Origin: a virus
Length of the DNA stretch: 21,459 nt
IMG/VR virus record: IMGVR_UViG_2088090015_000068
Location: 1 to 21,459 of that record
Strand: one strand, 5' to 3'
Of the stretch, positions 1,757 to 16,159 are shown piece after piece; the first letter of the stretch is position 1, and the number at the start of each line of letters is the position of its first letter. The notes under the pieces are model-generated. The model did no database searches. It saw only the letters and a list, made by a program, of their open reading frames with translations, and was not told the origin of the DNA. The translations under genes and the position numbers were made by a program.

Positions 1757-2185
1757 ATGGCTAATAAGCTTGCAACTCGTAGCTCTGGCCGAGTCCTCTC
1801 GGCGGAGTTTATCTTCAACCTGACCGACACGATGGACACCACGGCGGGGGTCAACCAGGCCTTCAGTACCGCCGCGGGCGTCTACGACGTCATTCGCCTT
1901 CCGGCAATGGCGTACGTGGTTGGGGGCGAAATCGTGGTGGAGACGGCTTCCAACGACTCCAGCACGGCGACCCTCGCGGTTGGTGATTCGGCCTCGGCGG
2001 CTCGTTACCTGGCGGCGACCTCGATCAAGACTGCGGCCCGTACGGCCCTGGTCCCGACCGGGTTTGTCACCACCGGCAATGACCTCCGGATTACCCTGGC
2101 CAATGCTGGCGGCGACGCCACGGCGGGCAAGGTCCGAGTCCGGGTTGAGTTCGTGATCCAGAACAACGTTCACGAAAACAACTAA
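1757..2185 (+). CDS. Candidate capsid decoration protein
   Basis: This 142-aa beta-rich protein is rich in Ala, Thr, Val and Gly, with no cysteine and no membrane segment. The sequence alternates short strands: VYDVIRLPAMAYVVGGEIVV, then TATLAVGDSASAARYLAA, then a VTTGNDLRITLANAGG segment and a final KVRVRVEFVIQNN strand. Small beta-rich proteins of this style commonly sit directly behind N4-gp56-family capsid genes. The ATG at 1757 has a strong ribosome-binding site, AAGGAGAAGG, starting at 1745. It follows the capsid gene by 11 bases and is followed immediately by an intrinsic terminator, so both are probably made together in large amounts. A role in decorating or stabilising the capsid is inferred from position, size and composition; no catalytic motif is visible. 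Confidence 0.7.
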   Translation: MANKLATRSSGRVLSAEFIFNLTDTMDTTAGVNQAFSTAAGVYDVIRLPAMAYVVGGEIVVETASNDSSTATLAVGDSASAARYLAATSIKTAARTALVPTGFVTTGNDLRITLANAGGDATAGKVRVRVEFVIQNNVHENN

Positions 2186-3338: not shown

Positions 3339-3748
3339 TGAGTCGCACGCCTGCTTCTTACAACATGACTGTGGTGCGCGGCTCGACTTGGGAGGACGAG
3401 TTCAGCTACACCGATGACGCCGGCGTAGCCATTGACCTGACTGGATATGAGGCCAGGATGCAGGTTCGCTCGCTCACGGGCCAGTACGGAACCACCACTA
3501 CTACGACATTGTTGTTGGAACTTACGACCGATGGCGCCGATCCACTGCTGGTGTGGGACACCGCGGCCGCCGGTGCGCTCAAGATCGTTGCGTCACCAGA
3601 CCAGCATGCCGTCCTCAACCCAAGTAATGCCAGGTCGGCTAAGTACGCTTACAGCATTGAGGTCTATCGGCCAGCCGGCGCCAACCCCGAGTACGTCATC
3701 CCGCTGGTGCAAGGCAAGCTCACGGTCCGGGGCGAGGTCACACGCTGA
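3338..3748 (+). CDS. BppU N-terminal-like Ig-type phage structural protein
   Basis: The product is 136 aa and essentially one beta-sandwich domain. It shows the signature order of the small phage domain seen at the N-terminus of baseplate protein BppU and in many stand-alone phage proteins: a charged start MTVVRGSTWEDEFSYTD, the hallmark AIDLTGYEARMQVRS, a central strand region ending LVWDTAAAGALKIVAS, a helix-like DQHAVLNPSNA, then YAYSIEVYRP and a final VPL-like strand with QGKLTVRGEVTR. Such proteins connect fibres or form small collar elements. ACGGAGG at 3325-3331 is a good ribosome-binding site for the ATG at 3338, which overlaps the previous stop. It sits immediately before two fibre-like genes, which supports a fibre-anchoring role (inference). 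Confidence 0.65.
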   Translation: MSRTPASYNMTVVRGSTWEDEFSYTDDAGVAIDLTGYEARMQVRSLTGQYGTTTTTTLLLELTTDGADPLLVWDTAAAGALKIVASPDQHAVLNPSNARSAKYAYSIEVYRPAGANPEYVIPLVQGKLTVRGEVTR

Positions 3749-4299
3749 TGCCAGTTATCGTCGCCAGTGGAATGACACCGCGTATCGTTGTGGTTAACAA
3801 CACCACCAGCGTTGGCAGCGTTACCGCGCGTAGCAGTAGCGTTCGCATTCCGGATCAGGGGGTCTCGCTTGGCGCCGTGACTGAGCGCACGACGGTCGTA
3901 CAGGTGGCGTCAACGGGGGTTCAAGGCGCCGCGGGCGCCCCCGGCGGGACCAGCGAGCCCCGCATCGCCAGTGAAGCACTCGGTGGCCACCGCGTTGTCC
4001 GCTCCACGGGGGCCGATACGGTCGGCTACGCCAGTAGTGACAATCCACTACACGGCGACGATACCCAGGGCATGACCTTGGGTGCCGCCAGCAGTGGGGC
4101 GACAGTCACCGTGCAGCGCACCGGTTCCGTGACCTTCAACGGCTGGGCATGGACGCAGGGCGAGCCAGTGTTTCTAGGTACTGGCGGCCTGCCAACGCAA
4201 AACGTACCGACCGCCGGCTTTGTGCAGGTGATTGGCCACGCAGAATCGGCCGACACGCTGTTCCTGCAGATCGAACCACCCATCTACTTCGAGGATTAA
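3748..4299 (+). CDS. Short fibre-like protein with collagen-like segment
   Basis: The product is 183 aa. Residues 1-55 are Val/Ser/Thr-rich and beta-like. Residues 57-67 hold a short collagen-like run, GVQGAAGAPGG, as found in trimeric phage fibres. Residues about 74-100 hold ASEALGGHRVVRSTGAD, a stretch of a type seen in phage head or tail fibres. The C-terminal module (about 119-180) has the order WAWTQGEPVFLGTGGLPTQ, then PTAGFVQVIGHA, then IEPPIYF. A related C-terminal module occurs in the next gene. GAGG at 3733-3736 may serve as ribosome-binding site, and the ATG overlaps the previous stop as TGATG. It is probably a trimeric fibre or head-fibre protein; which particle part carries it is not determined. 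Confidence 0.65.
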   Translation: MPVIVASGMTPRIVVVNNTTSVGSVTARSSSVRIPDQGVSLGAVTERTTVVQVASTGVQGAAGAPGGTSEPRIASEALGGHRVVRSTGADTVGYASSDNPLHGDDTQGMTLGAASSGATVTVQRTGSVTFNGWAWTQGEPVFLGTGGLPTQNVPTAGFVQVIGHAESADTLFLQIEPPIYFED

Positions 4300-4304
4300 C
4301 TCTC

Positions 4305-4904
4305 ATGGCTGCTCCACGCTTTCTTGCCAACATCGCTGGCCGTATCAAGATGGTCGCGACGATCGCGACGTCCGCGGGGGCGGGCGACGCCGATAAGATC
4401 CCAGCGACCAACGCCGCCGGCATCCTCGATCCGACGATCATTAACGCGGTCAACACGTCGGCCGGGGCAGGCAGTGCGGACAAGGTCGTTCTACTGGACA
4501 GCTCCGGTAAGATCGACACGACGATGATGCCGACGGGCATCGGCGCCGATACGATCAACATCGCCACCAGCGAAAACCTTGCCGCCGGGAACTTGGTCAA
4601 CATCTACGACAACGCGGGCACGGCAACGGCGCGCAAGGCCGACGGGACCGCCGAAGGCAAGGAATGCCACGGCTTCGTTCTGGCTGGCACCACGAGCCCG
4701 GCCAACGCCACGGTCTACTTGGAGGGCCAACTTACCGGCCTGACGGGACTGACGCCAGGCGCCCGGCAATATTTGACCACGACGGCCGGCGCGACTAGCG
4801 AAACCGCCCCGTCCACGGCCGGCAATGTCGTCCAGTGCGTTGGCGTTGCCGTGTCTGCCACTGCGATCGACTTCGAGCCGCAAGAGCCAATCACCGTCGC
4901 CTGA
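4305..4904 (+). CDS. Second short fibre-like protein with tandem N-terminal repeats
   Basis: The product is 199 aa from the ATG at 4305, which has GAGGA at 4291-4295 nine bases upstream; longer versions beginning inside the preceding gene lack support. After a short N-terminal helix, residues 22-47 and 51-76 are two tandem copies of a motif, TSAGAGDADKIP... and TSAGAGSADKVV..., each ending in a DPTIIN or DTTMMP turn. This start is common in phage tail and decoration proteins that carry repeats of the ADKI(P/V)xLDxxGKID type. The C-terminal 70 residues (ANATVYLEG, LTPGARQYLTTTAG, NVVQCVGVAVS, EPITV) resemble the C-terminus of the gene just upstream, suggesting duplication. The stop overlaps the next start by TGATG. 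Predicted role: fibre or capsid-surface protein. Confidence 0.7.
   Translation: MAAPRFLANIAGRIKMVATIATSAGAGDADKIPATNAAGILDPTIINAVNTSAGAGSADKVVLLDSSGKIDTTMMPTGIGADTINIATSENLAAGNLVNIYDNAGTATARKADGTAEGKECHGFVLAGTTSPANATVYLEGQLTGLTGLTPGARQYLTTTAGATSETAPSTAGNVVQCVGVAVSATAIDFEPQEPITVA
4368..4532 (+). repeat. Two tandem ~26-residue protein repeats
   Basis: The copies correspond to residues 22-47 and 51-76 of the encoded protein. Both share TSAGAG, an acidic A/S-A-D-K stretch, a small loop with AAG or SSG, and a final D-x-T-hydrophobic turn. The two are more alike in protein than in DNA, so the duplication is old or under selection for the protein. Confidence 0.6.
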
Positions 4905-6076
4905 TGGCTACGAAAAAGCCGCTCGCGCTCTACGCCGGCCGCATGAAGGAGCTGGCGACCGCCGACTCTGTATCTATTCAGTGGTCGTGGGTCGGCGGTG
5001 CGCCGACGACTCTGGCTGGTTATGGCATTACTGACGCGGTCAATAACTTCGGCGCCCAGAGTATCGCCGGCGCTAAACAATTTAACGGCGCTGTGCTGTT
5101 AACTGGCAGCTCTGGTGTCAAGCAGGCCAATCCAAAGTGGGAGTATCAGACTGAAACCGCCACGCGTCGGTGGCGCAATATATACAACGCCACCGACGCG
5201 ACTGACGGTACATTTAGCTGGGATAAGTGGAATGGGTCTACATGGGTGACCATCGCCAGCTTTGATACTAGTGCTTCTAATCTGTTCATCGGGGCCAACG
5301 CCGTCTGGCACGCTGGGAACCTGACCCCCTATACGGATAGCGCCGCTCGCGCGGCGGTTATCACAACGGCGATCACCAACGGCGACACCACGCACAGCCC
5401 CAGCGGCGACGCGGTGTTCGACGCACTGGCCCTGAAGCTCGATACCGCGCTCGGTATCAATATCGTCACCAGCGCCCCCTACACATTGGTCATGTCGGAC
5501 GCAAACAAGTCCGTTCGCATGAACATCGCATCGGCCAACGTCTGCACTTTCCCCCCAAATAGCGACGTGCCGTTCCCGATAGGTACGGAAATCTGGGTCG
5601 AGCAAGCGAATACCGGCACCACCACGGTATTGCCCGGCGCCGGCGTTACTTTCCGCGGTGCTGGTGCGGCGTATTCGCCCTCCGCGCAGTACGGCGTTGT
5701 TTGCTTCCTGAAAACCAACACCGACACGTGGACCGTCATTTCGCGAACGTCCATCCCCGAAACCGATAGCGAGTGGAACGCTCCGACTTTGTTGAATAGC
5801 TGGGTGAACTTCGGCGCCGGCTTCGATACGGCTGCTTACAGGAAAGTAAACAACCAAGTGATGCTGCGCGGGGTGATCAAGTCGGGGACGACCACCAGCG
5901 GAACGGTGCTCTTTACGCTTCCGGCCGGGTTCTTCCCGTCATCGCACCGGGTTTTCGCGGCCCTTAGTGGCGCCTCCATGGTGCGCGTAGATGTCCGAAG
6001 CACCGGCGACGTACAGCTTGGTGGTGCCGCCAGCGCCGTTTTCCTAACTCTGGACGGCATCAGTTTCTTCATTTAG
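4904..6076 (+). CDS. Tail fibre / receptor-binding protein
   Basis: The product is 390 aa from the ATG at 4904 (TGATG overlap with the previous stop). The N-terminus (LALYAGRMKELATADSV) is the type used to attach fibres in many phages. LAGYGITDAVN at about residue 43-53 is a classic phage tail-fibre repeat motif, and NAVWHAGNLTPY near residue 138 is another frequent fibre element. A middle beta domain of common fibre type follows (YTLVMSDANKSVRMN, then TCTFPPNSDVPFPIGTEI-like order, then TTTVLPGAGVTFRGAG). The last 100 residues (SWVNFGAGFDTAAYRK, then VMLRGVIKSG, then LFTLPAGFFPSSHR) form a beta-sandwich-like tip that probably binds the host receptor. No chaperone or peptidase domain is seen. 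It closes this module, just before the lysis cassette. Confidence 0.85.
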   Translation: MATKKPLALYAGRMKELATADSVSIQWSWVGGAPTTLAGYGITDAVNNFGAQSIAGAKQFNGAVLLTGSSGVKQANPKWEYQTETATRRWRNIYNATDATDGTFSWDKWNGSTWVTIASFDTSASNLFIGANAVWHAGNLTPYTDSAARAAVITTAITNGDTTHSPSGDAVFDALALKLDTALGINIVTSAPYTLVMSDANKSVRMNIASANVCTFPPNSDVPFPIGTEIWVEQANTGTTTVLPGAGVTFRGAGAAYSPSAQYGVVCFLKTNTDTWTVISRTSIPETDSEWNAPTLLNSWVNFGAGFDTAAYRKVNNQVMLRGVIKSGTTTSGTVLFTLPAGFFPSSHRVFAALSGASMVRVDVRSTGDVQLGGAASAVFLTLDGISFFI

Positions 6077-6077
6077 G

Positions 6078-6083
6078 TATAAT
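6078..6083 (+). promoter_or_regulatory. Perfect TATAAT box ahead of the lysis cassette
   Basis: TATAAT starts two bases after the fibre stop codon, 39 bases before the TTG start of the PAS-protein gene. I find no good -35 hexamer at 15-19 bases upstream, so this would be a weak or activator-dependent promoter, or chance. Its position in the only gap ahead of the lysis genes makes it worth recording. Confidence 0.35.
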
Positions 6084-6116
6084 TTGGGGGGCGATTGACG
6101 CCAAAAGGAGACGTCG

Positions 6117-6773
6117 TTGCTCGCCAGGATTCCCGAACTATTTAGCTGGTTAAACACTATAGGAGGGGCTTTAGCCTCGTTTGCGGCATTAATGGTCACT
6201 ATCGGCTTCGGAAAATGGGGTTGGCCCCGCGTTCGTTCCGCCGTGGGCGCCTCGGCTCGCTTCTTCAAAGGCGTGGCCGCCATCGGCGATCTCCAGGAAA
6301 CCGTAAGTAAGATCCACAAAGAGGTTGTGCCCAACGGCGGGGGCTCGCTCCGAGATGTCGTGAATCGCACAGAAATGGCCCTAACCGTGTTTATTAATTC
6401 CAGTCGCGCTCAATGGGACGGCATGGGGATGTTCGGTATCTTCGAAGCATATCCATCTGGGGAGTTTAACTACGTGAACGGAGTCCTCCAAAAATGGACT
6501 AATCGTTCGGAACTTAGTTTTAAAGGTAACGGCTGGGTTAATAGCATTTCCGCGCCCGACCGCGAGGCGGTACGGCAGGAGTGGGAGTCCTGTACTGAAG
6601 ACGTACGGGAATTTTCCATGAAATTCAATATGCGCCGTGCTGACGGCGTTGAGTTTCCCGTTTTATGGACCGCTACCCCGGTTACTGACCGTAATGGCGG
6701 CCCAATTGTGAAGTGGGTAGGCGTCGTACGCCGCCTTAACGAACCAGGAGAGTCCAGTGCTGCGCCTCATTGA
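6117..6773 (+). CDS. Membrane-anchored PAS-domain protein at the head of the lysis cassette
   Basis: The product is 218 aa with a TTG start at 6117, preceded at 6-base spacing by AAGGAG (6105-6110). Residues about 13-33 form one membrane segment (IGGALASFAALMVTIGF) followed by positive residues. Residues 57-90 form a linker helix with the motif NGGGSLRDVVNR. Residues about 104-206 read as a PAS fold: MFGIFEAYPSGEFNYVNG, then LSFKGNGWVNSISAPDRE, then FNMRRADGVEFPVLWTATPV, and GGPIVKWVGVV as the PAC end. No LOV-type cysteine motif, kinase, GGDEF or HTH output is present. PAS domains sense small ligands, redox or partners. It overlaps the next gene by 17 bases. Two 60-base lines (6421-6540) average about 45% GC, lower than the virion genes, which fits later acquisition. 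Topology and role in lysis timing are inferred. Confidence 0.8.
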   Translation: MLARIPELFSWLNTIGGALASFAALMVTIGFGKWGWPRVRSAVGASARFFKGVAAIGDLQETVSKIHKEVVPNGGGSLRDVVNRTEMALTVFINSSRAQWDGMGMFGIFEAYPSGEFNYVNGVLQKWTNRSELSFKGNGWVNSISAPDREAVRQEWESCTEDVREFSMKFNMRRADGVEFPVLWTATPVTDRNGGPIVKWVGVVRRLNEPGESSAAPH

Positions 6774-7143
6774 CCGCGTCAAGAAGCTCGCCGGCGAGTA
6801 CCAGGAGATTGTTTTCTGGCTTCCCCCCGCCCTCGTTTTACTGTTTATCGCCTTTAAACAGTTGCCGGCCCTTGATCCATATAGCAGCATCGACGGCTTC
6901 GGCCAGCTGTACTCCATGCTGATGAATATCGCGGGGGGCATCATGGTCTGCTTCAGCGCCTGGCTTACTAAGCGCGCCTACCTAGGGGTGTGGTCGGACG
7001 AAGATATATTGCAGGCACAGACCTTCCTGGTCAGCGCCTCAATGACGCCGGGCGAGAAATTCGCCCTTCTCGCCGCCGTCGGCCTTGACCTAGTGAAGTG
7101 GATCCTATGCTTCGTTTTCTGGTATGTAGTTGTCTTCTCCTGA
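6757..7143 (+). CDS. Three-helix membrane protein, candidate holin
   Basis: The product is 128 aa, starting at GTG 6757 with AGGAGAG just upstream. Three hydrophobic segments are visible: residues about 17-36 (VFWLPPALVLLFIAFKQL), about 52-70 (MLMNIAGGIMVCFSAWL), and about 101-128 (FALLAAVGLDLVKWILCF and following). The third ends at the C-terminus. The N-terminus is short and basic (RLIDRVKKL). Three membrane helices, small size and position before the endolysin would fit a class I holin. It lacks a strongly basic C-terminal tail, which many holins have, and the loop with DEDILQAQTFLVSASM is rather long. It could instead be a membrane partner of the PAS protein, whose gene overlaps its start by 17 bases. 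Confidence 0.6.
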   Translation: MLRLIDRVKKLAGEYQEIVFWLPPALVLLFIAFKQLPALDPYSSIDGFGQLYSMLMNIAGGIMVCFSAWLTKRAYLGVWSDEDILQAQTFLVSASMTPGEKFALLAAVGLDLVKWILCFVFWYVVVFS

Positions 7144-7343
7144 CGGGGTGTGCCGCACTCCCTAGCGCCGCCCCCCAGTCAGAACCTACTAGCAGCAGCT
7201 GCCCCCAAGCGGCTATCACCTATCTGCAGAAGGCGGAGACGTACGCACGCTGCCTGTCCACGATCGGTTGCATCGTTGATTTCCAGGCCACAAAGGAACG
7301 AGACCTCGCCAAGGCCCGTGCGGAAGTGGCATGCGCGGAGTAA
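7107..7343 (+). CDS. Small lipoprotein inside the lysis cassette
   Basis: The product is 78 aa from ATG 7107; a GTG nine bases earlier (7098) is the alternative. The first 15 residues give a very short signal peptide ending in the lipobox LLTGC, so Cys15 would be lipidated. The mature part has four further cysteines (in SSSCPQ, YARCLS, IGCIVD, EVACAE), enough for two disulphides in the periplasm, and a helical charged end (KERDLAKARAEV). It overlaps the preceding membrane protein gene by 37 bases and the endolysin gene by 13 bases, each in another frame. It is not the Rz1-like gene, which lies at 8746-9009, so this is an additional lysis-cassette lipoprotein of unknown function. An endolysin regulator or superinfection-exclusion lipoprotein are possibilities only. 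Confidence 0.6.
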   Translation: MLRFLVCSCLLLTGCAALPSAAPQSEPTSSSCPQAAITYLQKAETYARCLSTIGCIVDFQATKERDLAKARAEVACAE

Positions 7344-7990
7344 TTCTGGGCCTGCTGGTTATCTGCTGTGGTGCGGTTATGGCCGCGCCACCCACGAGGG
7401 TATCCCAGCGCGGCGAAAACCTAGTGGTAAAGTGGGAGGTAGGCGGACCCGCCACCTACACTAAAAAGTACCAGCATCCGCTATGGCCTGGAAATAGCGC
7501 CAGCGGGGTCACCATAGGTATTGGTTATGACTTGGGGCATAACTCTGAGTCGCAGATCCTGCGCGATTGGCAGAAGCACCCCCATCGTGGTTATTTGGCG
7601 GCAATGTCGGGGTTTAAGGGCCAAAGCGCTGGAAACCTAGCCGCCCGGCGAAAGTGGATCGTGACCCCTCTGCCGCTGGCAATGGATGTTCTGCGTGACC
7701 CCACCCTGATCCGATACACGAATATCGCGCTGCGCGCTTTCCCAGGCCTGGAAGAGATGCCTCAGCCGGTCATTGATGCCATCGTGGACTTAGTCTACAA
7801 CCGCGGCGGTAACATGCTCGGCAGCGCCCGCCTGGAGATGCGAACCATCCGGGATGTTTGTATCCCAGCTAAAGATTCGCAGTGTGTCGCCAATCAGCTT
7901 CGTGTAATGAAGCGGGTCTGGCGGAACGCCAAGTTGGGGAAAGGCCTCATGGCCCGCCGCGAAGATGAGGCTCGATTGATTGAGCTATGA
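7331..7990 (+). CDS. Exported lysozyme-like endolysin
   Basis: The 219-aa product degrades the peptidoglycan at the end of infection. Residues 1-19 are a hydrophobic export signal (GVILGLLVICCGAVMAA), so it is secreted by Sec or held as a signal-anchor-release form rather than needing a large holin hole. The catalytic region has the lysozyme-like order: Glu36 in VVKWEVGG, a spacer containing YQHPLWPGNSASG, and then VTIGIGYDLGH with Thr61 and Asp67, consistent with the Glu-Thr/Asp arrangement of T4-lysozyme-like and related families. A helical C-terminal part follows, with VIDAIVDLVYNRGGN, where N-R-G-G is a familiar element of these enzymes. GGAAG at 7322-7326 sits only four bases before the ATG. 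The stop overlaps the next start as ATGA. The exact glycosidase family is uncertain. Confidence 0.85.
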   Translation: MRGVILGLLVICCGAVMAAPPTRVSQRGENLVVKWEVGGPATYTKKYQHPLWPGNSASGVTIGIGYDLGHNSESQILRDWQKHPHRGYLAAMSGFKGQSAGNLAARRKWIVTPLPLAMDVLRDPTLIRYTNIALRAFPGLEEMPQPVIDAIVDLVYNRGGNMLGSARLEMRTIRDVCIPAKDSQCVANQLRVMKRVWRNAKLGKGLMARREDEARLIEL

Positions 7991-8271
7991 TTCGGTGGTT
8001 GGCCCGCACTAGCCTGGGAGTCTTCCTCCTCATAATTGTATACTTAGCCTACTTCGCGACGTATATTACAATCCAATACCCCCTGGAGAACCGGCATGGC
8101 CGAGTGGCGAAAGAACCTGTGGCTGACCAAGGACGAGGCCAAGGAAGCGGGAATGACCCACGAAGGGACCCTGTACGGGATCCCGGTGTATCTGGGCGAC
8201 ACGGACAACCCGGAAGCGTTCTTGGCGGTTCCCAAGATCCCCCTGCTGGTGCTTTGGACGCTGTTTTGTAA
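7987..8271 (+). CDS. Small single-pass membrane ORF with a dubious C-terminus
   Basis: The ATG at 7987 overlaps the endolysin stop (ATGA), giving a 94-aa product. The first 38 residues look real: a basic start (MIRWLAR) and a long hydrophobic helix (LGVFLLIIVYLAYFATYI) ending at YPLENRHG. From 8096 on the frame overlaps the next gene out of phase, and the encoded residues become Gly/Pro/Asp/Arg-rich (GRGQGSGNDPRRDPV), as expected for the shadow of another gene. Either a short membrane protein carries a non-selected tail, or a +1 slip near the C-run at 8079-8083 joins the helix to the following protein. It could be a holin or antiholin by its position after the endolysin. Function unknown. Confidence 0.5.
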   Translation: MIRWLARTSLGVFLLIIVYLAYFATYITIQYPLENRHGRVAKEPVADQGRGQGSGNDPRRDPVRDPGVSGRHGQPGSVLGGSQDPPAGALDAVL

Positions 8272-8353
8272 TAGCGCCTTCGAGTTCTTCGCTATGTTTT
8301 GCCCCGATTCGGTAGAGATTCGAGTCCCAGTTACTTTCGGGGACAAGCTGTGA
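8096..8353 (+). CDS. Small conserved-looking lysis-region protein
   Basis: The product is 85 aa. Residues 1-40 are hydrophilic with clear coding character (MAEWRKNLWLTKDEAKEAG, GTLYGIPVYLGDTDNPE), and residues 49-68 are hydrophobic (IPLLVLWTLFCNSAFEFFAM), followed by a short polar end. A GGAG at 8085-8088 seven bases before the ATG supports its own translation start. The hydrophobic segment contains Asn and Glu, so it may be a weak or re-entrant membrane segment. It is fully nested between the overlapping membrane ORFs at 7987 and 8350, and its stop overlaps the next start as GTGA. I do not recognise the family. Confidence 0.65.
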   Translation: MAEWRKNLWLTKDEAKEAGMTHEGTLYGIPVYLGDTDNPEAFLAVPKIPLLVLWTLFCNSAFEFFAMFCPDSVEIRVPVTFGDKL

Positions 8354-8511
8354 CTGATCCTGTTCCGTTTTTCAAACAGCCTAAATTTCTGCTGACCGCG
8401 GGGGTGATAGCGTTGCTAACTAGTCTTCTAGTTTGGGCCCTGATAAAGCCCGACCAGTATCTGGATGCCGTTAAGTTCCTCGCCGGCGCCTATCTGGGCA
8501 GCCCGACCTAA
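8350..8511 (+). CDS. 53-aa single-helix membrane protein, candidate pinholin or antiholin
   Basis: The GTG start at 8350 overlaps the previous stop (GTGA) and is preceded by the purine-rich GGGGACA near 8338-8344; a longer frame starting at ATG 8299 lies inside the preceding gene and is less likely. The product has one membrane helix at residues about 11-30 (LLTAGVIALLTSLLVWALI) and a short C-terminal helix (YLDAVKFLAGAYLGSPT). Tiny single-helix proteins next to an exported endolysin and spanins are good candidates for pinholins or antiholins; this is based on context. The stop shares bases with the Rz start (TAATG). Confidence 0.6.
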   Translation: MTDPVPFFKQPKFLLTAGVIALLTSLLVWALIKPDQYLDAVKFLAGAYLGSPT

Positions 8512-8882
8512 TGCTCAACTTCGTCTTCCCTCCCTGGGCCCGAGTTGCCCTCATGCTGCTGATCTTCGGTGCCGGCTACTGGACCCGCGGCTCGATCGAG
8601 GCCAGGAAAGAGGTGCGCGAGCTTAAATACCAAGTTAAACAGGCCGACAGGGCCGACGAAACTGTGGCCGACAAACTCCGCAATGAAGCCCGCGCCGATG
8701 CTCAACTATCTGCAGCCCAGCGCAAGAACCAGGACGCAGCCAAACATGACTCATCGTACAACGACTATCTTGATAGCCCTCTGCCTAAGCAGTCTCTTGA
8801 GTTCCTGCGCGACGCAGAGGCTGTCGATCCAAGCCCTGACGGTGCAAAGGCCCGGGTGCGACCTAACCACGGCTCGAACTAA
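8511..8882 (+). CDS. Rz: Rz-like inner-membrane spanin
   Basis: The product is 123 aa with one N-terminal membrane helix (residues about 9-24, WARVALMLLIFGAGYW) and a long charged periplasmic helix (EARKEVRELKYQVKQADRA, then DKLRNEARADAQLSAAQRK), the architecture of i-spanins, which span the periplasm and fuse the outer to the inner membrane after peptidoglycan is degraded. The C-terminus (LRDAEAVDPSPDGAKARV) is less helical. The identification rests strongly on the second reading frame that begins inside it and encodes a lipoprotein (8746-9009), the hallmark of Rz/Rz1 pairs. It is translationally coupled to the small membrane gene before it through TAATG. Confidence 0.82.
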   Translation: MLNFVFPPWARVALMLLIFGAGYWTRGSIEARKEVRELKYQVKQADRADETVADKLRNEARADAQLSAAQRKNQDAAKHDSSYNDYLDSPLPKQSLEFLRDAEAVDPSPDGAKARVRPNHGSN

Positions 8883-9009
8883 CGGCGAGCTGCAGGACTG
8901 CGCCGCCGTCAACCGGCTGGAGCTGAAAAAGGCCAACGCTGACAAGGCCCGGATCCAAGAACTGATCCGCCCAAAGCCTTGGTGGGAAAAGCTTTTTTTC
9001 TGGAAGTGA
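8746..9009 (+). CDS. Rz1: Rz1-like outer-membrane lipoprotein spanin
   Basis: The ATG at 8746 lies inside Rz in another frame, giving 87 aa; the frame is open further upstream but only this start gives a signal peptide. Residues 1-20 are a lipoprotein signal with lipobox LLSSC, Cys21 being the lipidation site. The mature part is longer than lambda Rz1 and not proline-rich; it contains two more cysteines (GCDLTT, QDCAAV), a charged helix (RLELKKANADKARIQEL) and an aromatic end, KPWWEKLFFWK. The gene overlaps the last 137 bases of Rz and extends 127 bases beyond it, so the pair is overlapping rather than embedded. Partner of the i-spanin in outer-membrane disruption. Confidence 0.82.
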   Translation: MTHRTTTILIALCLSSLLSSCATQRLSIQALTVQRPGCDLTTARTNGELQDCAAVNRLELKKANADKARIQELIRPKPWWEKLFFWK

Positions 9010-9022
9010 CCCGCCGGCGCTC

Positions 9023-9028
9023 TATAAT
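9023..9028 (+). promoter_or_regulatory. Perfect TATAAT box directly before the tail module
   Basis: TATAAT ends six bases before the ATG at 9035, in the 25-base gap after the lysis cassette. If used as a -10 box, transcription would start at or near the A of that ATG, giving a leaderless message; the ATG has no Shine-Dalgarno. No convincing -35 hexamer is visible 15-19 bases upstream. Confidence 0.35.
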
Positions 9029-13757: not shown

Positions 13758-14936
13758 ATGAGCGCCCGCGCACGAGTCAAGCAAACCGCAGTAGCCACAA
13801 GCGCCTACGCCTTTACCCTCGACGGTGGCGTCGCAGACGGAGACCTGCCAGCCCTTCTTTTCCGCGATGCTTTCCAGGTGCCTTCGGTCGCAACCGTGGC
13901 TGGTACGGTCATTTGGTATGACGTACCCGTTTTGATCGAGGTCACCAGCGGCACCGAGGCCGGAAAATGGCAAGTTTGCACAGGCACCCTAAGTCGCAGC
14001 GGTACGGACGTACTTACTTTTACGACTTCGGCTACTAAGATTGCTGGGGTATCAACCCAGACCGGCGACGCGGTATTGACCCCGCTGACCATAGCTTCCG
14101 GCGATACCGCCACCCTAAGCGTGGTTCCGCCGGGATACGAGTTGATCAGCCTACGCGGCCGCGCCCCGCTGACGGACATCAAGGCTGGCGCGGACAGCAT
14201 CGGGTCCTCGTTCTCCGGCGCAGAGCACACCATCCGGCTGTCTTCAGCCCTGCTGGCCTTAGGCGCCGGCGCACTGGCATACGGCGACGCTTCGATTGCC
14301 ATTGGCGATGGCGCCAGTACGCCATATGGCACGACTGCGGGCGTTGGTGCGTGCGCGATCGGCTACCAGGCCATCGCTGGGCCGCCCTTTAGCGCGTCGC
14401 TCGGGGGCCACAAGTCGTTCTCCAATGGCCCCTACGAGGTATGCATTGGCGGGATGAGCGATATCCAGATGCTGCAAAGTGGCACTACACCATCGGAACT
14501 ATGGCTAACCCACAGCGTGGGTATCAAGGCGGTAAGCACGACCGACGCGACGCCCACCAATATGCAGGCATACAACCCAGTTGGGTGGGTATCAGGCGAC
14601 ACGGCAGCCATCGCTTCCAGCCACAAGATCTATTGCGACTCCGGAATTACCCGGGTCACGGGGCGCCTGACGGCGATCAATCCCGCCACCGGCGACATGA
14701 AGTGCTGGGACCTTGACTGGACCGTTAAGACGACGCTGGACTACGCCACGACGAGCCTGTTCGTCACCCTGTCCAAGACGGTCGTCGCCAACGACACCGG
14801 CGCGGCGTCTTGGGACTGTGATGTGACTACGGATAGTGCCACCAATACGTGCGCAGTCCAGGTTACCGGCGCCGCAGCAACGGAGATCGTGTGGTCGCTG
14901 GCCTATGACGCCCACTACAGCACGGTCTACATCTAA
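13758..14936 (+). CDS. Fibre-like protein with YadA-head-type repeats
   Basis: The product is 392 aa. Residues about 60-110 (VPVLIEVTSGTEAGKWQV, GTLSRSGTDVLTFTT) are a common phage fibre shaft element. Residues about 170-225 carry repeats of the type seen in the beta-roll head of YadA-like trimeric adhesins: LGAGALAYGDASIAIGDGAS, then GACAIGYQAIAG, then ASLGGHKSFSNG, with small residues spaced by about 14-16. This points to a trimeric left-handed beta-roll that may contact the host surface. The C-terminal 140 residues have alternating strands with conserved-looking cysteines (KIYCDSG, MKCWDL, SWDCDV, TNTCAV). A GGTG seven bases before the ATG is a modest ribosome-binding site. The stop overlaps the next start as TAATG. 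Confidence 0.7.
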   Translation: MSARARVKQTAVATSAYAFTLDGGVADGDLPALLFRDAFQVPSVATVAGTVIWYDVPVLIEVTSGTEAGKWQVCTGTLSRSGTDVLTFTTSATKIAGVSTQTGDAVLTPLTIASGDTATLSVVPPGYELISLRGRAPLTDIKAGADSIGSSFSGAEHTIRLSSALLALGAGALAYGDASIAIGDGASTPYGTTAGVGACAIGYQAIAGPPFSASLGGHKSFSNGPYEVCIGGMSDIQMLQSGTTPSELWLTHSVGIKAVSTTDATPTNMQAYNPVGWVSGDTAAIASSHKIYCDSGITRVTGRLTAINPATGDMKCWDLDWTVKTTLDYATTSLFVTLSKTVVANDTGAASWDCDVTTDSATNTCAVQVTGAAATEIVWSLAYDAHYSTVYI

Positions 14937-16159
14937 TGTATGGCGCAACCCCTTTCGGCGCGGCGGCCTTTGGCAGCTTTGGCATCAGTGGCGATGCAAC
15001 TATTTACGACGGCCTAATCCTACACGCTGGGTTGACCCCGGCCCTGACCCAGCGCCTCTCGGAGACGCTGGGTTTCTCTACGTCCTTCCCTCCGACCGCC
15101 TTCACCCTGACCTTGGAAGAGACCCTCGCCCTGGCTCACACCCTCGAAGCCACGGAGTGGGCCACGTCAATCATCGAGATCATGGCCCTGAGCGGTACGG
15201 CCACCGCCGCGGCGCTCCGCTTGGCGACGTTGACTGAGACCCTGAACCTCGGGGATGCCGTGCGCATCGTCCTGAGCGCCATGGCCACCGAGACCCTGTC
15301 CCTGACGGCCTCTGCGGTCCCCACCCGGTCTGCCCTGGTCTCAATGGTTGAGACTCTGCGCCTCACCGGTGCGCTCACCAACACCTACCGGGCCCTGGCG
15401 ACGATCAGCGAGGCCTTGGCCCTGCGCGAAGTCACCCGCCTGGTGGAGATCGGGGATATTACTGACGTGATGGCCCTGACCGAGGCAATCACCACCCAGC
15501 TCTCGGCTTACGAGGTACTGACCGTCAGCCTATATCTGGCCGACACTGTGACGGGCATGGCTGATGTCACGGTCCTGGTGGAGGAGTCGTTCGAGCTGAA
15601 CGACACGATCACGCCCACTGGTCTGTTCCTGGCAACGATCACGGAAGGCCTGGACTTCTCGATCGGGTTTGTCTTTGACGGTGAGCCGTATATCGGCTAC
15701 TCCATGAATGCCGCGACTAAGGCCCTGTCTACTTATACGAACTACCCCTTCAACTCCATGGCAACGTTCAATGGCCGTAATTACGGCGCTTCGAGCGAGG
15801 GGCTGTATCGGATTGGTGGCGCGGACGACGCCGGCGAGACTATTACCTGGCGCTTGCGCACGGGTATGACTAACTTCGGTACAGGCCGAAATAAAGGCCT
15901 GGATGCGGCTTATTTGGGGTATACCGCGGATGGGCGTATCGCCTTGAAGTGTATAATCGTCTCTGCTACTGGCGAGAAGATTGGGTATTGGTACAACCTT
16001 ACTCCGAAGTCAGCGGCAAACCCGCAGCCGGGCCGTATTCCCACCGGCCGCGGCCTTAAGTCCGTTTATATGGGGTTTGAGTTGACCAACGTTGACGCCA
16101 GCGAAATTGAGCTTGATGTGATTGAGCTCCATCCGATCATCTTGGAGGGCCGTCTGTAA
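14936..16159 (+). CDS. Tail protein with about ten ETLxL repeats and a conserved-type C-terminus
   Basis: The product is 407 aa. It opens with a Gly/Ala/Phe-rich stretch (MYGATPFGAAAFGSFG). Residues about 35-245 consist of roughly ten degenerate repeats of 17-21 residues with the core ETLxL, for example LEETLALAH, LTETLNLGD, ATETLSLTA, MVETLRLTG, ISEALALRE. The C-terminal part (248-407) looks like a separate domain recognisable from short-tailed phage tail proteins: YIGYSMNAATKALSTYTNYP, FNSMATFNGRNYGASSEGL, then TWRLRTGMTNFGTGRNKG and AAYLGYTADGRIALK. The repeats would form a solenoid or extended shaft, with the C-terminus as a folded cap; the assignment is by pattern only. The start overlaps the preceding stop and the stop overlaps the next start (TAATG). 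Confidence 0.72.
   Translation: MYGATPFGAAAFGSFGISGDATIYDGLILHAGLTPALTQRLSETLGFSTSFPPTAFTLTLEETLALAHTLEATEWATSIIEIMALSGTATAAALRLATLTETLNLGDAVRIVLSAMATETLSLTASAVPTRSALVSMVETLRLTGALTNTYRALATISEALALREVTRLVEIGDITDVMALTEAITTQLSAYEVLTVSLYLADTVTGMADVTVLVEESFELNDTITPTGLFLATITEGLDFSIGFVFDGEPYIGYSMNAATKALSTYTNYPFNSMATFNGRNYGASSEGLYRIGGADDAGETITWRLRTGMTNFGTGRNKGLDAAYLGYTADGRIALKCIIVSATGEKIGYWYNLTPKSAANPQPGRIPTGRGLKSVYMGFELTNVDASEIELDVIELHPIILEGRL
15038..15670 (+). repeat. Degenerate tandem protein repeats, ETLxL type
   Basis: About ten or eleven copies of a 17-21 residue unit cover residues 35-245 of the encoded protein. The most regular copies contain A-x-x-x-x-x-E-T-L-x-L. DNA identity between copies is low, so the array is old and maintained for protein structure. 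Confidence 0.65.

What the first reader, a model, noticed from the sequence alone, without database searches (positions are those of the whole stretch)
6117..6773. Membrane-anchored PAS sensor encoded at the head of a phage lysis cassette
The protein has one N-terminal membrane helix, a linker helix with NGGGSLRDVV, and a PAS fold with its PAC end, but no kinase, cyclase or DNA-binding output. It heads a run of lysis genes and overlaps a three-helix membrane protein. A sensor without an output domain that is membrane-bound and coupled to a possible holin suggests that lysis timing may respond to a host signal (ligand, redox or membrane state). Local GC near 45% in two counted lines, below its neighbours, is consistent with acquisition. 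The PAS call is by pattern; the lysis-sensing role is inference.
Basis: partly seen in the sequence, partly recalled or inferred. Interest (0 to 1): 0.72.

Follow-up and report, generated by a model that had tools for sequence, protein, structure and literature searches.

The report
Membrane-anchored PAS protein in phage lysis operon
This phage begins its cell-bursting gene block with a membrane-anchored, sensor-type (PAS) protein whose design recurs in about 14 groups of phages; its job, possibly tuning when the host bursts, is inferred and not shown.

Summary
Window 6117-6773 encodes one N-terminal membrane helix, a PNGGGSLRD turn, a helical linker and a real PAS domain (Pfam PAS_3 3.7e-10; AlphaFold2 pLDDT 89-97 over the PAS; Foldseek best hit NifL PAS, 8.6e-9), with no output domain. 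It heads a genuine lysis block and overlaps a multi-helix membrane gene; both features recur in a 50%-identical relative (L001). The N-terminal module belongs to a phage membrane family, 'TM + PNGGxS[LIMV][RK]D', seen in about 180 viral loci, mostly without PAS and often beside holins and endolysins. PAS-bearing versions form 14 clusters, but only 3 lie clearly in lysis blocks; others adjoin terminase, tail, Mom or transporter genes. Charge bias puts the PAS in the cytoplasm. The closest tested example is LysF1b, a one-helix N-out/C-in holin-like lysis regulator of mycobacteriophages, but its Pfam model (PF10874) matches none of 41 records tested. Best explanation (about 0.4): a cytoplasm-facing PAS regulator tuning holin triggering in this phage. 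A lysis-independent membrane sensor is a serious rival. The GC claim is overstated: 54% for the gene against 61% for the window.

The parts
6117..6773 (+). Membrane-anchored PAS protein, 218 aa, TTG start
   Evidence: Open frame with AGGAG at 6106-6110; PAS_3 3.7e-10; AF2 model
6129..6200 (+). N-terminal membrane helix (residues 5-28), predicted N-out/C-in
   Evidence: Hydropathy and AF2 helix; net charge higher after the helix than before in 89% of 178 family members and in 20 of 20 with PAS
6330..6356 (+). PNGGGSLRD motif (residues 72-80): turn between two predicted helices plus helix start
   Evidence: Pattern match with 0 expected by chance; near-universal in the family, partly because it was the search pattern
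6426..6737 (+). PAS domain (about residues 104-207)
   Evidence: Pfam PAS_3, AF2, Foldseek and VIA-align
6757..7143 (+). Membrane protein with 2-3 helices, holin candidate, GTG start overlapping the PAS gene by 17 nt
   Evidence: Hydropathy; weakly similar (pairwise E 4e-6) to AhaSv WRQ05415, the gene directly before that phage's endolysin; L001 relative begins alike
7107..7343 (+). Small putative lipoprotein (LLTGC lipobox)
   Evidence: Sequence; no PHROG match
7331..7990 (+). Endolysin with N-terminal hydrophobic signal
   Evidence: phrog_7910 endolysin 3.6e-6; PF00959 9e-4, below its cut-off; 44% identity to the AhaSv endolysin
7987..8271 (+). Small ORF with one membrane helix
   Evidence: Hydropathy
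8096..8353 (+). Small ORF matching phrog_6519 (unknown function)
   Evidence: E 4.3e-7
8299..8511 (+). Small ORF with one membrane helix
   Evidence: Hydropathy
8511..8882 (+). Rz-like i-spanin
   Evidence: phrog_214 Rz-like 0.011, one N-terminal helix; weak, supported by the embedded Rz1-like partner
8746..9009 (+). Rz1-like o-spanin lipoprotein overlapping Rz
   Evidence: phrog_456 Rz-like 2.2e-7 on the longer ORF 8569-9009; lipobox LLSSC

Best explanation
The protein is a membrane-tethered, cytoplasm-facing PAS regulator built on an anchor module that phages mostly use in lysis blocks. The N-terminal helix sits in the inner membrane (N-out, C-in). A PNGG turn and SLRD helix start link it to a long helix that carries the PAS domain. 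It is encoded just before, and probably translationally coupled to, a holin candidate (6757-7143). Most likely a change in the PAS (small-molecule binding, redox state or partner exchange) travels through the linker, alters assembly of the helix in the membrane, and so speeds or delays holin triggering. Shown by computation: domain make-up, gene order, overlaps, recurrence and predicted topology. Inferred: contact with the holin, any signal, and any effect on timing.
For: PAS and anchor confirmed. Genuine lysis block, same slot as in KPP25. PAS gene plus overlapping membrane gene kept in L001 at 50% identity. Two further PAS-bearing clusters adjoin lysis genes: L024/L045/L049/L050 (PG-binding endolysin-like protein) and L076 (Rz-like). 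PAS-less members of the anchor family sit beside holins and endolysins; an r1t holin, where found, is within about 1.3 kb of the motif in 7 of 7 records and directly downstream in 5. Predicted C-in topology in 20 of 20 PAS-bearing members. LysF1b, a one-helix N-out/C-in protein with lysis-timing phenotypes, gives a worked precedent for the layout (PMC13056207).
Against: 11 of 14 PAS-bearing clusters are not shown to lie in lysis blocks. KPP25 lacks the gene, so it is not needed for lysis in that lineage. No sequence match to PF10874, the LysF1b family. No cofactor-type His or Cys is invariant in the PAS. No experiment.
Confidence: 0.4

Rival explanations
1. A lysis-independent membrane sensor or host-takeover protein: the anchor places a PAS at the inner membrane to act on host energy metabolism, transport or signalling, and its place before the lysis genes is one of several late-gene positions.
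For: PAS-bearing relatives adjoin virion structural genes (L015 group), terminase (L023), tail genes (L040 group), Mom (L137), EamA (L061), a papain-like peptidase (L058) and a glycosyltransferase (L029).
Against: Does not explain why PAS-less members of the same anchor family keep to holin and endolysin genes, nor the overlap with a holin candidate in both the window and L001.
Confidence: 0.3
2. A lysis accessory in which the PAS is a signal-blind dimerisation or scaffold domain that sets oligomer state of the membrane helix.
For: No invariant His or Cys and few invariant PAS residues beyond fold-typical Gly and Trp; most family members do without PAS and end in a short helical tail, so the PAS may merely replace it.
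Against: A dimerisation helix would suffice, as in the PAS-less members; PAS is retained across 14 divergent clusters. Neither point is strong.
Confidence: 0.2
3. A decoy or adaptor that pairs with PAS domains of host sensor proteins and disables or redirects them.
For: PAS without output domain, predicted cytoplasmic and membrane-bound; varied genomic contexts.
Against: No host partner known; does not explain the lysis-block link of the anchor family.
Confidence: 0.1

Closest known systems
LysF1b of mycobacteriophages Girr and NormanBulbieJr (HHpred match to DUF2746, PF10874; PMC13056207)
   Same: One N-terminal membrane helix, predicted N-out/C-in, basic residues after the helix, helical cytoplasmic part, gene in a lysis block beside another membrane gene
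   Different: No PAS domain; PF10874 matched none of 41 records of this family including the window; LysF1b has an experimental phenotype, this protein has none
PAS-less TM-PNGGxSLRD proteins of actinophages (mu1/6 gp52, TurkishDelight gp37, P1312_040, Sonali gp22) and PHROG 9869
   Same: Same anchor and motif; lysis-block neighbours; PHROG 9869 matches all 16 PAS-bearing proteins tested
   Different: No PAS; short tail instead; function untested
'PAS domain' proteins of uncultured Caudovirales phages (A0A6J5NY05, A0A6J5QVN9)
   Same: Similar length and fold, best two matches among predicted viral structures
   Different: No function or context assigned here; whether they carry the PNGGxSLRD motif was not checked
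Phage Mu releasin and the phiKZ type IIIb holin (as described in PMC13056207)
   Same: Single-helix membrane proteins of lysis; releasin is described as most similar to LysF1b in topology, and the phiKZ holin has a globular cytoplasmic domain
   Different: No PAS; the phiKZ holin is described as N-in/C-out; no sequence comparison was made here
VqmA of vibriophage VP882 (from memory)
   Same: Phage-encoded PAS protein linked to the lysis decision
   Different: Soluble transcription factor with a DNA-binding output; this protein has none and is membrane-anchored

Membership tests
PAS domain (PAS_3, PF08447) | Score over the curated Pfam cut-off | tested here: met
   40.4 bits against 25.6
PAS domain (PAS_3, PF08447) | PAS fold | tested here: met
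   AF2 confident over 107-206; Foldseek 8.6e-9; VIA-align Z about 16-17, rmsd about 1.7-2.8 over about 100-118 residues
LOV or FixL-type haem PAS | Conserved photo-active Cys or haem-ligand His | tested here: not met
   No His or Cys invariant or nearly so in the PAS of 23 relatives; this does not exclude flavin or other ligands
Sensor histidine kinase, cyclase or PAS transcription factor | Output domain in the same protein | tested here: not met
   Only PAS families match above cut-off; the frame ends just after the PAS, here and in relatives
TM-PNGGxSLRD phage membrane family (defined here; PHROG 9869 in part) | Membrane helix shortly before PNGGxS[LIMV][RK]D | tested here: met
   the PHROG 9869 match of the window protein alone is weak (E 0.0031)
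LysF1b / DUF2746 (PF10874) | One N-terminal membrane helix, N-out/C-in | tested here: met
   By hydropathy and charge bias only
LysF1b / DUF2746 (PF10874) | Match to the PF10874 profile | tested here: not met
LysF1b / DUF2746 (PF10874) | Deletion changes lysis timing | not testable with these tools
   Needs a phage in culture
i-spanin (Rz) | N-in/C-out with periplasmic C-terminal part | tested here: not met
   Charge bias predicts C-in; a separate Rz-like gene is present at 8511-8882
Lysis block | Adjacent endolysin, spanins and holin candidate | tested here: met
   only 3 of 14 PAS-bearing clusters show this

The most novel reading that the evidence does not exclude
Several phage lineages carry a one-protein input to lysis timing: a membrane-tethered PAS that reads a host cytoplasmic signal (metabolite, redox or energy state) and gates the holin, so that lysis time follows host physiology.
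Probability: 0.2. Interest if true: 0.85.

Novelty: new variant of a known kind. Interest (0 to 1): 0.52.

Why it matters
How lytic phages match lysis time to host state is an old open question with few known inputs. A recurrent PAS fused to an anchor that phages use in lysis blocks is a concrete, testable candidate. Separately, the TM-PNGGxSLRD module is a widespread phage membrane family for which no Pfam entry was found here and whose neighbours point to lysis.

Tried and rejected
Kinase or transcription-factor fragment: rejected, the frame ends at the PAS and the same end is kept in relatives. LOV or FixL-type haem PAS: rejected on conserved residues. Spanin: rejected on predicted topology. 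Membership in LysF1b/DUF2746: not filed, no profile match in 41 records. Sequence relatives in the PDB: none. Promoter before the gene: TATAAT at 6078-6083 but no scored sigma-70 site, and 5 TATAAT in the window against 2.3 expected, so no weight. The idea that PAS-bearing homologues always adjoin lysis genes failed: 3 of 14 clusters. Endolysin families PF00959, PF01510, PF13539 and PF00182 found little in PAS-bearing records; in the L050 phage a lysozyme lies 27 kb from the PAS gene, which argues against a single lysis block there; PF00182 rang in no control, so that search says nothing. Relatives of 6757-7143: none in annotated phages or viral contigs by search. Literature searches for phage PAS with lysis, holin or endolysin gave nothing relevant; the library is open-access only. 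Searches failed for technical reasons.

Full report
1. Observation. The frame 6117-6773 encodes 218 residues from a TTG with AGGAG six bases upstream. Pfam PAS_3 matches residues 119-203 at 3.7e-10, above the curated cut-off. With an alignment of 23 relatives, AlphaFold2 gives a membrane-type helix 5-28, helices 36-69 and 76-103, and a PAS fold at 107-206 with pLDDT block means of 89-97; mean pLDDT is 82.2 and pTM 0.59, so the placement of the helices against the PAS is not reliable. Foldseek finds 636 PDB chains at E<=1e-3, best the NifL PAS; VIA-align ranks many PAS domains as tied at Z about 16-17. Fold similarity does not tell a ligand.

2. Surroundings. The gene follows a tail protein gene (4835-6076) by 40 nt and overlaps the next membrane gene, 6757-7143, by 17 nt. 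Then come a small putative lipoprotein, an endolysin (PHROG 3.6e-6; 44% identity to the AhaSv endolysin), small membrane ORFs, a weak Rz-like gene and an embedded Rz1-like lipoprotein, then the head-closure gene Hc3. The major capsid protein is 65% identical to that of Pseudomonas phage KPP25, which has the same order: structural genes, two small membrane proteins, an Rz-like protein, an endolysin, Hc3, with no PAS gene. So the slot is a lysis block. The 6757-7143 product is weakly similar to the AhaSv gene product encoded directly before that phage's endolysin (pairwise E 4e-6).

3. Relatives. One viral contig (L001) carries a full-length relative at 50% identity in the same order, with a TTGA overlap to a gene that begins like 6757-7143. 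A degenerate DNA pattern for PNGGxSLRD[AV] gave 62 viral stretches, and PNGGxS[LIMV]KD gave at least 120, the scan having stopped at its limit. Apart from two unrelated matches in the first set (L025, L031), almost all have a membrane helix upstream of the motif (119 of 120 in the second set). Most are short and lack PAS. PAS-bearing ones fall into 14 clusters at 40% identity, the weakest case being L155. PAS_3 matches 13 of the first 16 at E<=0.01. In bacterial genomes one scan found eight loci; only L076, a 5-kb contig with an Rz-like neighbour, carries the PAS. No Pfam entry matched the anchor module above cut-off in ten PAS-less proteins; PHROG 9869, of unknown function, covers part of it. 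In isolate phages the motif protein is rare.

4. Gene context. PAS-less members: mu1/6 and TurkishDelight (after the holin), P1312 and Sonali (overlapping the lysin); L021 VanY, L039 PG-binding, L042 and L053 r1t holin, with weaker NlpC or CHAP in L027 and L028. In 50 PAS-less records an r1t holin occurs in 7, always within about 1.3 kb of the motif and 5 times directly downstream. PAS-bearing members: lysis genes adjoin in window/L001, in L024/L045/L049/L050 (PG-binding protein) and in L076. Elsewhere the neighbours are virion structural genes (L015 group), terminase (L023), tail genes (L040 group), a Mom-family gene (L137), a papain-like peptidase (L058), EamA (L061), glycosyltransferase (L029), and, judged by eye only, portal (L092 group) and a ribonucleotide-reductase-like gene (L105). 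The contigs are fragments and lysis genes diverge fast, so absence is weak evidence, but the lysis link of the PAS form is clearly not universal.

5. Topology and mechanism. Net charge is higher after the helix than before it in 89% of 178 members and in 20 of 20 PAS-bearing ones, which predicts N-out/C-in and a cytoplasmic PAS. PNGG falls between two predicted helices, and S-x-x-D is a common helix cap (general knowledge); I infer a hinge plus helix start. LysF1b, the functionally tested protein most like this in layout, is a one-helix N-out/C-in protein whose deletion disturbs lysis timing; phages with LysF1b alone can be triggered early by energy poisons (PMC13056207). By analogy the SLRD-PAS protein would act at the membrane on holin assembly, with the PAS as input. 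Contact, signal and effect are inferred.

6. Membership. It is a PAS protein and a member of the TM-PNGGxSLRD family as defined here. It plausibly works like LysF1b but is not filed in DUF2746, because that model did not match in 41 records. It is not a kinase, a transcription factor or a spanin.

7. Composition. The gene has 54.2% GC and GC3 of 57%, against 61.2% for the window, among the lowest 1.6% of windows of its length; other lysis ORFs are also low. This is compatible with acquisition or with weaker codon constraint and does not decide.

8. Verdict. Observation confirmed; interpretation partly supported. New variant of a known kind: PAS fused to a lysis-associated phage membrane anchor, in many lineages. 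The probability of a lysis-timing regulator is about 0.4, and of a true signal-gated lysis input about 0.2.

Noticed in passing
L014-L073 and L090-L209 (loci): A large phage membrane-protein family, one helix followed by PNGGxS[LIMV][RK]D, mostly under 120 residues, found in well over 100 viral contigs with holin or endolysin neighbours in many cases; no Pfam family matched it.
   Followed up: partly
window 3748-4299 and 4149-4904: Two overlapping ORFs in different frames both match the same part of phrog_4368, which suggests a tandem duplication rather than a frameshift.
   Followed up: no
window 14936-16159: A virion structural protein also matches an amidase PHROG weakly (1.4e-4), possibly a virion-borne wall-degrading part.
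   Followed up: no
window 7107-7343: An additional small lipoprotein with a lipobox sits between the holin candidate and the endolysin, besides the Rz1-like gene.
   Followed up: no
window 1757-2185: Matches a PHROG named Rz-like spanin (6.1e-8) but lies next to the capsid gene, where KPP25 has a structural protein; the PHROG name is probably misleading.
   Followed up: no
L137:1965-2738, L208:6663-7169, L061:744-1100: PAS-bearing relatives adjoin a Mom-family DNA-modification gene, a PagL-like lipid A deacylase gene and an EamA-type transporter gene.
   Followed up: no
window 6078-6083 and 9023-9028: TATAAT hexamers lie just before the PAS gene and just after the lysis block, but the count in the window is not above chance.
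   Followed up: partly
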